A stretch of DNA of 64,000 nucleotides, taken from Porphyromonas sp. (lineage in GTDB: Bacteria > Bacteroidota > Bacteroidia > Bacteroidales > Porphyromonadaceae). The position numbers were made by a program, and so were the translations under genes. Shown in pieces: positions 6,906 through 60,043 of this stretch. Below the pieces are notes generated by a model. The model was not told the DNA's origin, ran no database searches, and saw nothing but the letters and a program-made list of their open reading frames with translations. Positions within the stretch are counted from its first letter, which is position 1, and every line of letters begins with the position of its first letter. The DNA is taken from positions 1 through 64,000 of the forward strand of contig JAUNLH010000003.1 in NCBI GenBank assembly GCA_030532365.1, written 5' to 3'.

Positions 6906-7009
6906 GACTTCCGAACTTAGAAATTCTAAGTTCCCAACTTCGATACATCTAAGTTCCCAACTTAGGCAAATCGAAGTTCGGAACTCGGAACAGCCGAAGT
7001 TGGGAACTA
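6906..7009. repeat. Pentad repeat element A (five 13-mers, 23-bp period)
   Basis: Five 13-bp units at 6906, 6928, 6951, 6974 and 6997, on the pattern AAGTT-SSS-AACTT. The first spacer is 9 bp (AGAAATTCT, itself a dyad) and the other three are 10 bp, for 104 bp in total. The left outer unit GACTTCCGAACTT is a degenerate terminal arm. Beyond it, at 6886-6893, is CTCTGAAG, matching on the other strand the CTTCAGAG tail seen at elements C and E. The rest of the 399-bp gap between purM and rbr holds the purM promoter on the left and the rbr terminator on the right. Confidence 0.9.
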
Positions 7010-14496: not shown

Positions 14497-14600
14497 ATGC
14501 TCCGAAGTCAGAAAATTTAAGTTGGGAACTTAGGTGCATCGAAGTTGGGAACTTCGGTAACTCTAAGTTCCCAACTTCGATTTATCTTAGTTCGGAACTA
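14497..14600. repeat. Pentad repeat element B (five 13-mers, 23-bp period)
   Basis: Units at 14497 (degenerate ATGCTCCGAAGTC), 14519, 14542, 14565 and 14588. The first spacer is 9 bp (AGAAAATTT) and the other three are 10 bp; total 104 bp. The last unit, TAGTTCGGAACTA, is a compensated variant: both outer bases changed so that the dyad is kept. The element lies 322 bp upstream of the antiporter start and 154 bp before the DUF4254 terminator. Confidence 0.88.
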
Positions 14601-16968: not shown

Positions 16969-19749
16969 CTAGAACTGCTGCCCTAGCACAAAGTGAATGT
17001 TGCTACCTCCGATGGTGCCGCTGCCGTCAGGTCGGTCGAAACCGTAGCCCCAGTCAATCCCCATCAGACCGACCATCGGTAGTAGTATTCTGACACCCAA
17101 GCCTGCGGAACGTTTAAGTTGGAATGGATTGTAGTCCTCTATCCTCCTCCAGGCATTACCTGCTTCTGCAAATCCGTGGATCCAGATTGTAGCACTATTC
17201 TCAGCTAATATGAGGTAACGGAGCTCCATAAATGCCTTGGTATACGCGTAAGCTCCAAGACCTGACGCACCTGCGATGCTACCATTGCGATATCCACGAA
17301 GACCTCCCATTTCATTGAGATACCCCCCGTAGTAGCCGCTCATACCGTCACCTCCCATATAGTAGGTACCAAAGGGCGAGCGCTTATTGGCGTCGTAGGA
17401 TCCGATGATACCACTCTCTACACTTGCCATAAGCACTGGTGTGCGCTGGTGTGCCATAGGATCGAGCAGTGGGATGAAGAACTGTCCTTTACCCTTTAGC
17501 TTATAGTACTCGATGAACTTATTTCTCTCCTCGGGCGAGAGGGTAGGATCGCTGTAGTCCACTCCATCAAATAGGGAGTAAGGAAGTGTGCTTGACGCAT
17601 TTAGCGTAAAGTTGGAGCCTCGTCTAGTATAGATGGGATTGTCCATAGAGTTGCGAGTCAACACCATTGAAAGGTTGATGTCATTGGCAACTCCATTTTC
17701 CATACCAAAGTTATAGTAGTATGAGCTCCAGTTCTTCATCCTATACATGGTATAGTTGAGCCCAAACTGAACCTGGAAGTTATCGTCAGGCCAAGTGAGT
17801 CGCTTACCATAAGCAATACTCAGACCCAGCATATCCAGCGTCTTATCGGGGTCGAAGGCACTCTCATAAAGAGCACTTGGATCGCCATAGCCACCGTAGC
17901 CTCCATAACCCCCGTAACCATAGGGGTAACCGTAGCCACCATACCCTCCATAGCCACCGTAGCCATAACCATAAGGATATCCGCCCATCATGTAGGGATT
18001 CATCTGCATGATATCCTCCATCTGTGTATTGAAGTAGTTGCGGTTGATGTCTGTCTGACGGCTGTAATATGCGGAGAAGCTAAACATGTTGGGGCGCTTG
18101 CGACCGAACCATGGGTCGACAAACTGCAAGCTATAGCTCTGATAGTAGCGGGCGTTGGTCTGCACTCTCAGGGAGAGCGTTTGTCCGTCTCCTCTAGGGA
18201 GTAAATTGCGGTAGGAGCTCTTATTGAAAAGGTTACGCATCGAGAAGTTAGAGAAGGTCAAGCCTGCCATTCCGATCAGGCCTGTCTGACTCCAACCTAG
18301 CGACAACTCTATCTGGTCGTTAGAGCGTGGGGTCAGATCCCACTCAATGTCGACGGTACCGCTCTCCTCATGTGGGATTAGATTGGGTACGATCTTCTCC
18401 TGATCGAAGTGCCCCATCTGCATCACCTGGCGCATCGTACGCATGACATAGTCACGATTGAAGAGCATACCTGGCTTAGTATAGAGCTCTCTTCGCACCA
18501 CCTCCTCATATACGTGGTCGTTACCCCTTATCACCACTTTATTGATCGTGGCTGGCTTACCCTCCGTAATACGGATGTCCAGAGTCACGGAGTCGCCCTT
18601 TACCTCAGTCTCAATAGGGACCATATAGGCAAAGAGGTAGCCATTATTCGAGTAGACATTACTGATAGCGTCTTCGTCGACGACCAGACGATCGTTGAGC
18701 TTCTTTTGGTCGTACACATCACCCGGCTTCATACCTAACAACTCCTGAAGCTGGTCAGATGGGTACTTGGTATTCCCAACAAAGTTGATGTCCTTAATGT
18801 AGTACTGGTCACCTTCGCTCAATGCAATATCGATATTTATTCGCTTGTCATCGTGGCGGTAGATCGTATCGCTCAATATTTCAGCGTCCCTATAGCCATG
18901 CTGGTGATACAGCTCAATGATGTTGTTGAGGTCATCTTTGTAATCACTCTCTACGAACTTCTTTTGGCTGAATATCTCAAGGAAGCTGACCCAAGGTCGC
19001 TTAGACAAGTCAAATCGCTCGTTAGTCTTCTTCATCGCTCTTAAAAGCTGGGCATCACTTAGTGCCTCATTGCCGATGAAAGAGATCGTTTCGACCTTCG
19101 TCTTAGTATTCTTCTGAATATCAAAGTCTAGTATGACATAGCCGGGGCGCTTGGGGTCTGGAGTAGTGCGGGCATTGACTGACGCTTCACTGAAGCCCTT
19201 ATCATCGAAGTATCTCCCTATCATGATCTTAGATCGATCAATGATATTCGGCGTGATGTGCGCTCCCTGCTGGAGTGCCAGCAACTTCCCTTCTTTGAGG
19301 TCATCTGCTTCGCTCTTCTTCACTCCGTTGATATTAAGCTGAGACAGACGAGGTTGCTCTTTGATATTGATAGCTAGCCACACAGAGTCACCTACCATGC
19401 GGGTTGCTTCGACACTCACTTCACTAAACAGCCCATTGCGTAGGTAGTTCTGTACCGTCTGAGTGATCTCTTCTCCCGGGATCGTTACACGCTGCCCAAC
19501 CTTGAGACCGGAGATATTCATCACGACACTCTCATCGTAGCTTTCATTGCCTCTCAGCTCAATGCCTGCTATGACCTTAGTCACCGGATGGCTGTATGTA
19601 ATGACTGGCACCTCGTGTGGCGGTATCGAATCCGTGTGGTTTGTAGCTGACTCCTGCGCAAGTACCAGCCCTCCAAGGCTTGCACTGGATACTATAAAGA
19701 GTGATGCTACAATAAACTTGAGGTGATAGCGTCTGTCTCTATGATTCAT
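16969..19749 (-). CDS. bamA: Outer-membrane protein assembly factor BamA
   Basis: Core of the machine that inserts beta-barrels in the outer membrane. A signal peptide (FIVASLFIVSSASLGGLVLAQ) precedes several POTRA repeats (about residues 55-465), then the barrel, ending in the aromatic pattern FVLGQQF. ATG at 19747-19749 is chosen because it gives a proper signal peptide; the open frame extends into uppS. About 926 aa, longer than E. coli BamA. A striking Gly/Tyr-rich stretch (YGYGGYGGYGGYG and similar) at about residues 585-621 lies in the barrel, probably an external loop. It follows uppS by 13 bp and precedes ompH. Confidence 0.95.
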   Translation of the reverse strand: MNHRDRRYHLKFIVASLFIVSSASLGGLVLAQESATNHTDSIPPHEVPVITYSHPVTKVIAGIELRGNESYDESVVMNISGLKVGQRVTIPGEEITQTVQNYLRNGLFSEVSVEATRMVGDSVWLAINIKEQPRLSQLNINGVKKSEADDLKEGKLLALQQGAHITPNIIDRSKIMIGRYFDDKGFSEASVNARTTPDPKRPGYVILDFDIQKNTKTKVETISFIGNEALSDAQLLRAMKKTNERFDLSKRPWVSFLEIFSQKKFVESDYKDDLNNIIELYHQHGYRDAEILSDTIYRHDDKRINIDIALSEGDQYYIKDINFVGNTKYPSDQLQELLGMKPGDVYDQKKLNDRLVVDEDAISNVYSNNGYLFAYMVPIETEVKGDSVTLDIRITEGKPATINKVVIRGNDHVYEEVVRRELYTKPGMLFNRDYVMRTMRQVMQMGHFDQEKIVPNLIPHEESGTVDIEWDLTPRSNDQIELSLGWSQTGLIGMAGLTFSNFSMRNLFNKSSYRNLLPRGDGQTLSLRVQTNARYYQSYSLQFVDPWFGRKRPNMFSFSAYYSRQTDINRNYFNTQMEDIMQMNPYMMGGYPYGYGYGGYGGYGGYGYPYGYGGYGGYGGYGDPSALYESAFDPDKTLDMLGLSIAYGKRLTWPDDNFQVQFGLNYTMYRMKNWSSYYYNFGMENGVANDINLSMVLTRNSMDNPIYTRRGSNFTLNASSTLPYSLFDGVDYSDPTLSPEERNKFIEYYKLKGKGQFFIPLLDPMAHQRTPVLMASVESGIIGSYDANKRSPFGTYYMGGDGMSGYYGGYLNEMGGLRGYRNGSIAGASGLGAYAYTKAFMELRYLILAENSATIWIHGFAEAGNAWRRIEDYNPFQLKRSAGLGVRILLPMVGLMGIDWGYGFDRPDGSGTIGGSNIHFVLGQQF
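17886..17994 (-). repeat. Coding low-complexity Gly/Tyr repeat within bamA
   Basis: Tandem triplet-type repeats (GGY, GYP) encode about 36 residues of almost pure Gly and Tyr. DNA here is a degenerate run of CCATAGCCACCGTAG-like units, so it could gain or lose units by slippage without leaving frame. Confidence 0.85.
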
Positions 19750-19762
19750 TCTATTATATCTA

Positions 19763-20509
19763 TCATCTATAATCATCCTTGACTTGGTCTCCCGTCCGCC
19801 CATATCGTCGCTCCCTCTGTTGGTAGTCGTACACCGCTTCATACAGCTGCTCTTCACCGAAGTCCGGCCAAAAGGTAGGAGTGAAATAAAACTCAGTATA
19901 TGCTATCTGCCAGAGCAAGAAGTTACTTACACGCTGCTCCCCACCTGTCCGGATCAGAAGGTCAGGATCTGGGATACTCAACGCTCCTAGAGCTAGCTCT
20001 GCATTAAAGGTTACCTCATCTACCTGCGTCGCTCCCTTCTCTATGAGGCTATTCACAGCACGAAGTATCTCCGACCTGCCCGAGTAGCTCAGCGCTAGGA
20101 TGAGCTGAAGGCCATCATTACTGCTCGTACGCTCAATCCCATCAAGGAGCGATTGCCGAGCTTCTGCTGGCAGGAGCTCGAGGTCACCGATAACTTTTAG
20201 CTGAACTCCCTTCTCATCCAGCTCGTCTATTTCATTATTCAGAGAAGTGACCAAAAGCTGCATCAAGAGCTGGACTTCCACCTCCGGGCGTTTCCAGTTC
20301 TCCTCCGAAAAGGTGTATAGCGTCAGAGACTGCACTCCCAACTTAGTTGCTGCTTGTATCACCGCTCGCACACTCTCCGTGCCTTGTTCGTGACCAAAAC
20401 TTCTGTCCTCTCCGCGAGCTCTTGCCCAACGACCATTACCATCCATTATGATAGCAATGTGCCTTGGCACGCGTTTGGGGTCTATCTGTTGTAGACAAGA
20501 GCTTTTCAT
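19763..20509 (-). CDS. uppS: Isoprenyl transferase (undecaprenyl diphosphate synthase)
   Basis: Condenses isopentenyl diphosphate units onto farnesyl diphosphate to make the C55 carrier for peptidoglycan and surface glycans. The signature HIAIIMDGNGRWARARG with the Mg-binding Asp lies at about residues 15-31, and the C-terminal DLLIRTGGEQRVSNFLLWQ block is conserved. ATG at 20507-20509 is chosen: it has AGAGGGAAG just upstream, whereas the longer frame uses TTG at 20530. Length 248 aa. It lies between the DUF6242-like gene and bamA. Confidence 0.96.
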   Translation of the reverse strand: MKSSCLQQIDPKRVPRHIAIIMDGNGRWARARGEDRSFGHEQGTESVRAVIQAATKLGVQSLTLYTFSEENWKRPEVEVQLLMQLLVTSLNNEIDELDEKGVQLKVIGDLELLPAEARQSLLDGIERTSSNDGLQLILALSYSGRSEILRAVNSLIEKGATQVDEVTFNAELALGALSIPDPDLLIRTGGEQRVSNFLLWQIAYTEFYFTPTFWPDFGEEQLYEAVYDYQQRERRYGRTGDQVKDDYR

Positions 20510-24641: not shown

Positions 24642-24766
24642 CTAATATTTAAGCTGACCTCACCAACTGCCCAGCTAGCCTGGGTGTAGGCAAAGTTTTA
24701 GCTCCCTCTTATCACAATTGGGTCGTATATCTTTCAGATAACACACCTCGGAAGCTGAGAAAATCT

Positions 24767-24801
24767 AAGACCGGAACTTAGAAATTTTAAGTTCGGGTCT
24801 C
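24767..24801. repeat. Minimal repeat element C (two terminal units only)
   Basis: AAGACCGGAACTT at 24767 and AAGTTCGGGTCTC at 24789 face each other across the 9-bp spacer AGAAATTTT. This is the two end arms of the longer elements with the middle three units absent. The conserved tail CTTCAGAGCTC follows at 24814-24824. The element lies between the divergent ABC operon and the ScdA_N-like gene. The rest of this 412-bp gap holds the two promoters and the dyad at 24915. Confidence 0.8.
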
Positions 24802-31900: not shown

Positions 31901-32003
31901 AAGCTCCGAACTTAAAAATTCTAAGTTGGGAACTTCGATGCATCTAAGTTCCCAACTTCGACAACTCTAAGTTCCCAACTTAGAATTTTTAAGTTCGGGT
32001 CTC
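31901..32003. repeat. Pentad repeat element D (five 13-mers, two 9-bp end spacers)
   Basis: Units at 31901, 31923, 31946, 31969 and 31991. Both outer spacers are 9 bp (AAAAATTCT and AGAATTTTT) and the inner two are 10 bp, giving 103 bp. The outer arms AAGCTCCGAACTT and AAGTTCGGGTCTC form inverted ends. This is the most symmetric member. It lies between divergent tsaE and smpB; nothing else is evident in the 445-bp gap beyond the two promoters. Confidence 0.92.
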
Positions 32004-38317: not shown

Positions 38318-38421
38318 AAGACCCGAACTTCGATTGATCCGAGACCGGAACTTAAACTTATCTAAGTTCCCAACTTCGACGCATCTAAGACCGGAACTTA
38401 GATTTTTTAAGTTCGGAGGTC
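38318..38421. repeat. Pentad repeat element E (five 13-mers, 23-bp period)
   Basis: Units at 38318, 38341, 38364, 38387 and 38409, spacers 10, 10, 10 and 9 bp, total 104 bp. Three units carry AAGACC- or GAGACC-type left arms instead of AAGTT. The right end (AAGTTCGGAGGTC) is followed by the conserved tail CTTCAGAG at 38434. It lies between divergent DUF4301 and typA. The remaining 228 bp to the typA promoter (38422-38649) holds nothing I recognise. Confidence 0.9.
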
Positions 38422-52167: not shown

Positions 52168-52271
52168 GACACCGGAACTTTCATCTATCTAAGTTCCGAA
52201 CTTCGACCCATCTAAGTTCGGAACTTCGGTACATCGAAGTTGGGAACTTAGATTTTTTGAGTTCGGAGCTC
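52168..52271. repeat. Pentad repeat element F (five 13-mers, 23-bp period)
   Basis: Units at 52168, 52191, 52214, 52237 and 52259, spacers 10, 10, 10 and 9 bp, total 104 bp. Centres are CGG, CCG, CGG, GGG and CGG, so this member is richest in the CpG-containing form. The right arm GAGTTCGGAGCTC is a strong terminal dyad. It lies between divergent queA and rpsU. The rest of this 592-bp gap contains only the two promoters and nothing else I recognise. Confidence 0.92.
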
Positions 52272-59939: not shown

Positions 59940-60043
59940 CACCTCCGAACTTAGATTTTCTAAGTTCCCAACTTAGATACATCGAAGTTCGGAACTTCGA
60001 CAACTCTAAGTTCCCAACTCCGATCGGTCAAAGTTCCCAAGGA
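59940..60043. repeat. Pentad repeat element G (five 13-mers, 23-bp period)
   Basis: Units at 59940, 59962, 59985, 60008 and 60031, spacers 9, 10, 10 and 10 bp, total 104 bp. The last unit, AAGTTCCCAAGGA, has lost its right arm. It lies between the hairpin after the NlpE-META gene and the promoter of the outer-membrane protein gene, in a 427-bp gap. The stretch 60044-60208 shows nothing I recognise. Confidence 0.9.

What the first reader, a model, noticed from the sequence alone, without database searches (positions are those of the whole stretch)
31901..32003. Fixed copy number: six of seven elements have exactly five units
Seen: elements A, B, D, E, F and G all have five 13-mers in 103 or 104 bp, with one 9-bp A/T-rich spacer at an end (two in D) and 10-bp spacers elsewhere. 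Tandem minisatellites usually vary in copy number through slippage; unit sequences here have diverged while the number stays five. Inference: the five-unit block is copied or selected as a whole, for example as a binding platform or a folded DNA/RNA unit.
Basis: seen in the sequence. Interest (0 to 1): 0.8.

Follow-up and report, generated by a model that had tools for sequence, protein, structure and literature searches.

The report
Fixed five-unit palindrome arrays every 10 kb
This Porphyromonas-like bacterium carries perhaps 150 or more copies of a 104-base intergenic DNA element made of five phased palindromes, spaced about every 10,000 bases; sister species have the same geometry in unrelated sequence, which suggests a fast-changing, protein-bound chromosome-organising site for which I found no published description.

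Summary
Six of the seven window elements have five units in 103-104 bp; the seventh is a three-unit remnant. In a genome sample, 49 complete aligned copies measured 104 bp (46) or 103 bp (3). They showed 895 substitutions against consensus, 473 of them in the central 68 columns, where there was no indel. Each position has its own spacer and end sequence, so the block is copied as a whole and its geometry is constrained: not slippage. Covariation does not support a full-length hairpin.

Going further, arrays are intergenic, about 10 kb apart and over-regular (CV 0.40 versus 0.63-0.71 expected). The sequence is absent from 37 family relatives. Yet at least four other species of the genus carry arrays of unrelated sequence with the same 22-23-bp dyad geometry and their own usual unit number. 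In one, no neighbouring arrays are closer than 5.5 kb. Between two sister species, synteny blocks end at arrays.

No target-site duplication and no Y1, DDE_Tnp_1 or Mu-C transposase was found. Best reading: a phased protein-binding platform, dispersed as a unit, probably organising the chromosome; binding and function are inferred. Closest known: BrickBuilt of P. gingivalis, and BIMEs.

The parts
31901..32003 (-). Element D (the finding): five units, 103 bp, symmetric copy with two A-type ends (two 9-bp spacers), between tsaE-like and smpB-like reading frames
31901..31913 (.). unit 1 of D, AAGCTCCGAACTT
31923..31935 (.). unit 2 of D, AAGTTGGGAACTT
31946..31958 (.). unit 3 of D, AAGTTCCCAACTT (arms invariant in 51/51 aligned copies)
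31969..31981 (.). unit 4 of D, AAGTTCCCAACTT
31991..32003 (.). unit 5 of D, AAGTTCGGGTCTC
6906..7009 (-). Element A, five units, 104 bp
14497..14600 (-). Element B, five units, 104 bp
24744..24801 (+). Element C, truncated or decayed copy with three recognisable units
38318..38421 (+). Element E, five units, 104 bp
52168..52271 (+). Element F, five units, 104 bp
59940..60043 (-). Element G, five units, 104 bp

Best explanation
Each array is a fixed, phased protein-binding platform that was dispersed through the genome as one ~104-bp core (perhaps ~185 bp with weak flanks). A dimeric DNA-binding protein most likely occupies successive AAGTT-SSS-AACTT dyads 22-23 bp (about two helical turns) apart, and the complex needs this number and phase of dyads. 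Arrays sit between genes roughly every 10 kb and probably mark or anchor chromosome segments; rearrangements between sister species fall on them. The protein's specificity turns over between species, so sequence changes while geometry stays. SHOWN: whole-block copying, fixed length, arm constraint, intergenic location, over-regular spacing, species-specific sequence with shared geometry, coincidence with synteny breaks in one sister pair. INFERRED: the protein, its cooperativity, and the chromosome-organising role.
For: 46 of 49 copies are 104 bp; 473 substitutions and 0 indels in the central 68 columns; arms of units 3-4 99% conserved against 78% for inner spacers and 66% for centres; spacer ends keep one A-type and one C-type half-site (pairing 0.10-0.20 versus 0.46-0.51 expected); no copy inside a gene, mean spacing 10.1 kb, CV 0.40 versus 0.71 (P<1e-4) or 0.63 (P=5e-4); G027: 67 arrays, unit distance 22 in 183/183, minimum spacing 5,543 bp, 0 of 56 under 5 kb against ~15 expected; period 22-23 in every unrelated family found by a scan open to periods 19-27; 20 of 21 synteny-block edges at arrays versus 4 of 14 inner gaps, P=5e-5.
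Against: No binding protein has been identified and no binding shown. Position-specific spacers mean a copying mechanism existed, and it is unknown. Regular spacing could come from insertion exclusion. Breakpoint coincidence is modest against an intergenic null using G027 arrays only (P=0.027). Some genus members showed no array in the small samples read. Genes were called with a simple script.
Confidence: 0.48

Rival explanations
1. A non-autonomous mobile element (MITE-like) whose five-unit block is the transposase-recognised unit. Its spacing reflects transposition immunity (a copy blocks insertion nearby) plus purging from genes, not a chromosome function.
For: Discrete, directional, dispersed block; mutual exclusion below ~5 kb in G027; species-specific families; BrickBuilt, the closest published element, is described as a MITE with some TSDs.
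Against: No target-site duplication at any offset; no Y1_Tnp, DDE_Tnp_1 or Mu-transpos_C in the 90%-complete genome, though other transposase classes were not searched; ends are not clean terminal inverted repeats; arms and phase are far better conserved than the ends, the reverse of what a recently active transposon needs.
Confidence: 0.25
2. Target of a site-specific or structure-dependent recombination system: dyads with flippable centres recombine with each other, shuffling chromosome blocks and flipping unit centres.
For: Synteny blocks of a sister pair end at arrays, and one G032 array carries the left flank of one G027 array and the right flank of another; centres occur as GGG/CCC/CGG/CCG blocks; spacers carry one half-site of each of two types; D looks like an A-end/A-end product.
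Against: Ordinary homologous recombination between repeats, or break tolerance at gene borders, also explains the breakpoints; half of the edges in G032 have no array of this family nearby; no recombinase tested; most copies keep B-to-A polarity.
Confidence: 0.15
3. A transcribed hairpin (terminator, promoter or mRNA-stability element) acting on neighbouring genes.
For: Strong predicted fold of D; BrickBuilt segments have bidirectional promoter activity.
Against: No within-copy covariation; divergent, convergent and co-directional contexts all occur; no Rfam match; regular spacing is unexplained.
Confidence: 0.1
4. Ordinary tandem minisatellite; the five is coincidence.
For: Tandem 22-23-bp units are real, and BrickBuilt units vary from 1 to 22.8.
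Against: Sharp 104-bp mode, position-specific spacers and ends, no indels in the centre.
Confidence: 0.02

Closest known systems
BrickBuilt minisatellite/MITE of Porphyromonas gingivalis (PMC4596501)
   Same: Same bacterial family; 23-nt unit; always intergenic; species-restricted; predicted stem-loops; causes assembly breaks. By my reading its unit also holds two dyads half a period apart.
   Different: 1 to 22.8 units per locus and only 19 loci; 12-bp TIRs shared with IS5-type elements and some TSDs; units all in one direction. Here: ~150+ loci estimated, fixed frame, flippable centres, no TIR/TSD, unrelated sequence.
REP/BIME elements with RAYT (PMC2817692)
   Same: Intergenic, over 100 copies, palindromic units in arrays, species-specific; BIMEs bind gyrase/IHF/Pol I and are suggested to organise the chromosome.
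   Different: No Y1 transposase here; BIME repeat number varies; units 22-23 bp with strictly fixed phase and number.
Chromosome-organising sites such as matS, parS, or Noc sites (own knowledge)
   Same: Short dyads bound by a dedicated protein and distributed non-randomly over the chromosome.
   Different: Those are single sites, not multi-unit arrays, and their sequence is not replaced wholesale between sister species.

Membership tests
BrickBuilt (P. gingivalis) | sequence match to the 23-nt unit AGAYCATARTATCCTCTCRTRTG | tested here: not met
   0 matches in this genome, 217 and 28 in two genomes of the other genus
BrickBuilt (P. gingivalis) | variable number of 23-nt repeats | tested here: not met
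   104-bp frame in 46 of 49 copies
BrickBuilt (P. gingivalis) | intergenic, ~23-bp period | tested here: met
MITE | terminal inverted repeats and target-site duplication | tested here: not met
   No TSD at any offset tested; ends related but not clean inverted repeats
MITE | transposase in the genome able to act on it | tested here: inconclusive
   DDE_Tnp_1, Y1_Tnp and Mu-transpos_C absent; other classes not searched; genome 90% complete
REP/BIME | cognate RAYT (Y1_Tnp) in the genome | tested here: not met
   controls positive
REP/BIME | intergenic palindromic units in arrays, >100 copies | tested here: met
   77 matches in 782 kb, none in genes
structured RNA family (Rfam) | match to a curated family | tested here: not met
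selected full-length hairpin | within-copy covariation of paired arms | tested here: not met
chromosome-organising protein site | non-random distribution along the chromosome | tested here: met
   over-regular spacing in this genome and in G027
chromosome-organising protein site | bound by a dedicated protein in vivo | not testable with these tools
   needs pull-down or ChIP

The most novel reading that the evidence does not exclude
A previously undescribed genus-wide class of chromosome-structuring arrays: short, fixed-number (3-5) dyad arrays with an invariant 22-23-bp geometry, about one per 10 kb with mutual exclusion below ~5 kb. Their sequence is replaced wholesale between species, presumably in step with a rapidly evolving binding protein, and chromosomes are rearranged in blocks cut at the arrays.
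Probability: 0.3. Interest if true: 0.92.

Novelty: new variant of a known kind. Interest (0 to 1): 0.72.

Why it matters
Intergenic palindromic repeats are usually treated as debris of mobile elements. Here the number and phase of units are fixed despite divergence, copies are over-regularly spaced, and species of one genus share geometry but not sequence. That makes the old question of whether bacterial repeats organise the chromosome directly testable (pull-down, ChIP, Hi-C, array deletion). The turnover between species resembles the site/binding-protein races known from eukaryotic centromeres.

Tried and rejected
Slippage minisatellite: rejected by the 104-bp mode. Full-length hairpin: D folds, but copies do not covary. 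RAYT, IS5-type and Mu/Tn7-type transposases: not found in this genome. Target-site duplications: none. Phage, plasmid or viral-contig source: no match. Rfam: none. Position conservation between this species and G027: not testable, as no gap with an array had both neighbours conserved and adjacent in the samples. Clean empty sites between G027 and G032: only messy differences. Naming the species: only 'closest named SmpB is Porphyromonas levii, 73%'. Literature searches found no description of such arrays outside P. gingivalis, but the library lacks most subscription papers.

Full report
CHECK. The window element at 31901-32003 has five 13-mers AAGTT-SSS-AACTT (outer ones degenerate) with spacers of 9, 10, 10 and 9 bp. 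Five further window elements have five units in 104 bp; the seventh (about 24744-24801) is a three-unit remnant. A two-unit pattern (up to 3 mismatches) has 291 matches in the window's own genome (1.69 Mb, 61 contigs, 90% complete) and 0 in the reversed-pattern control.

CENSUS. I fetched stretches covering about 46% of the genome and aligned copies after orienting them with a profile. Of 49 complete aligned copies, 46 are 104 bp and 3 are 103 bp. The copies are on average 75% identical pairwise. Against the consensus there are 895 substitutions, 473 of them in the central 68 columns, where there is no indel at all. The count of 'good' 13-mers depends on the threshold, but the five-register frame does not: arm match is 7.1, 8.4, 9.6, 9.9 and 7.4 of 10 inside and 3.9 and 4.8 just outside. 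A profile scan of 782 kb gave 77 matches, some cut by contig ends and a few weak; by extrapolation the genome holds roughly 150-170 copies. The stretches for the first census were partly chosen because they held matches, which could inflate density but not unit number.

ANATOMY. The element is directional. Read from its B end: GAGAyCsGAACyT, spacer near CGGTAAATTT, unit, spacer near AGAGTTGTCG, unit, spacer near CGATGCATCT, unit, 9-bp spacer AGATTTTTT, AAGTTCGGAGGTC (A end). Each position has its own sequence, so copies descend from one another as whole blocks. Weak conservation continues to about -45 and +36 bp. Arms of the central unit are invariant in 51 of 51 aligned copies; arms of units 3-4 are 99% conserved, inner spacers 78% and centres 66%. 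Centres come as GGG, CCC, CGG or CCG blocks. Spacer ends are mostly A..G or C..T, i.e. one AACTTAGA and one AACTTCGA half-site face each other: pairing 0.10-0.20 against 0.46-0.51 expected from shuffled partners, none of 2000 shuffles as low. Relatedness among copies is not corrected for in that test. D is a symmetric copy with two A-type ends, which is why it has two 9-bp spacers and folds so well.

FOLDING. D folds strongly as DNA or RNA. But within-copy complementarity is not above between-copy complementarity for u2:u4, u1:u5, s1:s4 or s2:s3. So a full-length hairpin is a by-product of palindromic units, not a demonstrated target of selection.

PLACEMENT. None of the copies that could be placed lies in a gene; 48 of 90 intergenic gaps of 300 bp or more hold one; contexts are 21 divergent, 9 convergent, 18 co-directional. 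Neighbouring elements are 10.1 kb apart on average with CV 0.40. Random choice among gaps >=150 bp gives CV 0.71 (P < 1e-4); the more conservative choice among gaps >=300 bp gives 0.63 (P = 5e-4). Genes were called with a simple script, and several contigs end inside elements.

RELATIVES. The sequence is absent from 37 other genomes of the family; among 393 genomes of the order only three others had matches, which look unrelated. Yet other species of the genus carry arrays of unrelated sequence with the same geometry: CTAATACCGRTATTAG in G027 and G032 (period 22), GCTTAGTTGCANCTC in G031 (22), TTAATATATACTAA in G030 and a few in G033 (23), and more. A pattern-free scan open to periods 19-27 returned only 22 and 23 and nothing in shuffled sequence; it is not very sensitive, and samples of G028, G029, G033, G034 and G035 gave no hit. 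Families have their own usual number: G027 four (50) or three (16) of 67 arrays, with unit distance 22 in 183 of 183 cases; G031 four in most arrays read, G030 four in the two read; G032 mostly three. In G027 no array lies in a gene, and the closest two neighbours are 5,543 bp apart; 0 of 56 intervals are under 5 kb against about 15 expected.

REARRANGEMENT. Between sister species G027 and G032 (about 86% DNA identity in aligned parts), 20 of 21 edges of synteny blocks of at least 5 kb lie within 350 bp of an array in one or other species, against 4 of 14 conserved inner gaps (Fisher 5e-5). One G032 array has as neighbours the left flank of one G027 array and the right flank of another. Breakpoints tend to avoid genes anyway; with G027 arrays only and an intergenic null the excess is modest (P = 0.027), so cause and consequence are open.

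TRANSPOSITION. No target-site duplication; no Y1_Tnp, DDE_Tnp_1 or Mu-transpos_C in the genome; no phage, plasmid or viral-contig match. BrickBuilt of P. gingivalis (PMC4596501) is the closest published element. It shares the intergenic 23-nt unit but has 1 to 22.8 units, TIRs and some TSDs. BIMEs (PMC2817692) are the closest functional analogy.

CONCLUSION. The most economical account of fixed phase, invariant arms, asymmetric half-sites, regular spacing and geometry conserved across unrelated sequences is a phased protein-binding platform, dispersed by an unidentified past mechanism and now probably structuring the chromosome. The protein and the function are inferred, not shown. Immunity-bearing transposition and site-specific recombination remain live rivals.

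Noticed in passing
L160, L165, L166, L167, L173, L241 (genomes G027, G030, G031, G032): Arrays of unrelated sequence with the same 22-23-bp dyad geometry in other species of the genus, sometimes more than one family per genome (e.g. GGGACTGCAGTGCCAYCCCTAC x6 at L241:10530-10770, at a synteny break; GGAATNNATTCCGCA near L173:8282).
   Followed up: partly
L167:1339-1615, 1830-2060, 17418-17657: 240-290-bp nested palindromes (long hairpins inside hairpins) in G031, a different class of intergenic repeat.
   Followed up: no
e.g. L102, L105, L109, L138, beside five-unit elements: A companion dispersed repeat CTCCGACGNAGGTCGGAYGTCG, itself palindromic; 7 of 11 copies in the sample lie within 300 bp of a five-unit element.
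   Followed up: partly
contig ends of the assembly (e.g. C2, C5, C12, C13, C25, C28, C29, C46): Many contigs of the draft assembly end inside an element, so the elements seem to break assembly.
   Followed up: no
17888-17965: A 9-bp tandem repeat (TAGCCACCG) inside the 16969-19857 reading frame, a repetitive protein segment.
   Followed up: no
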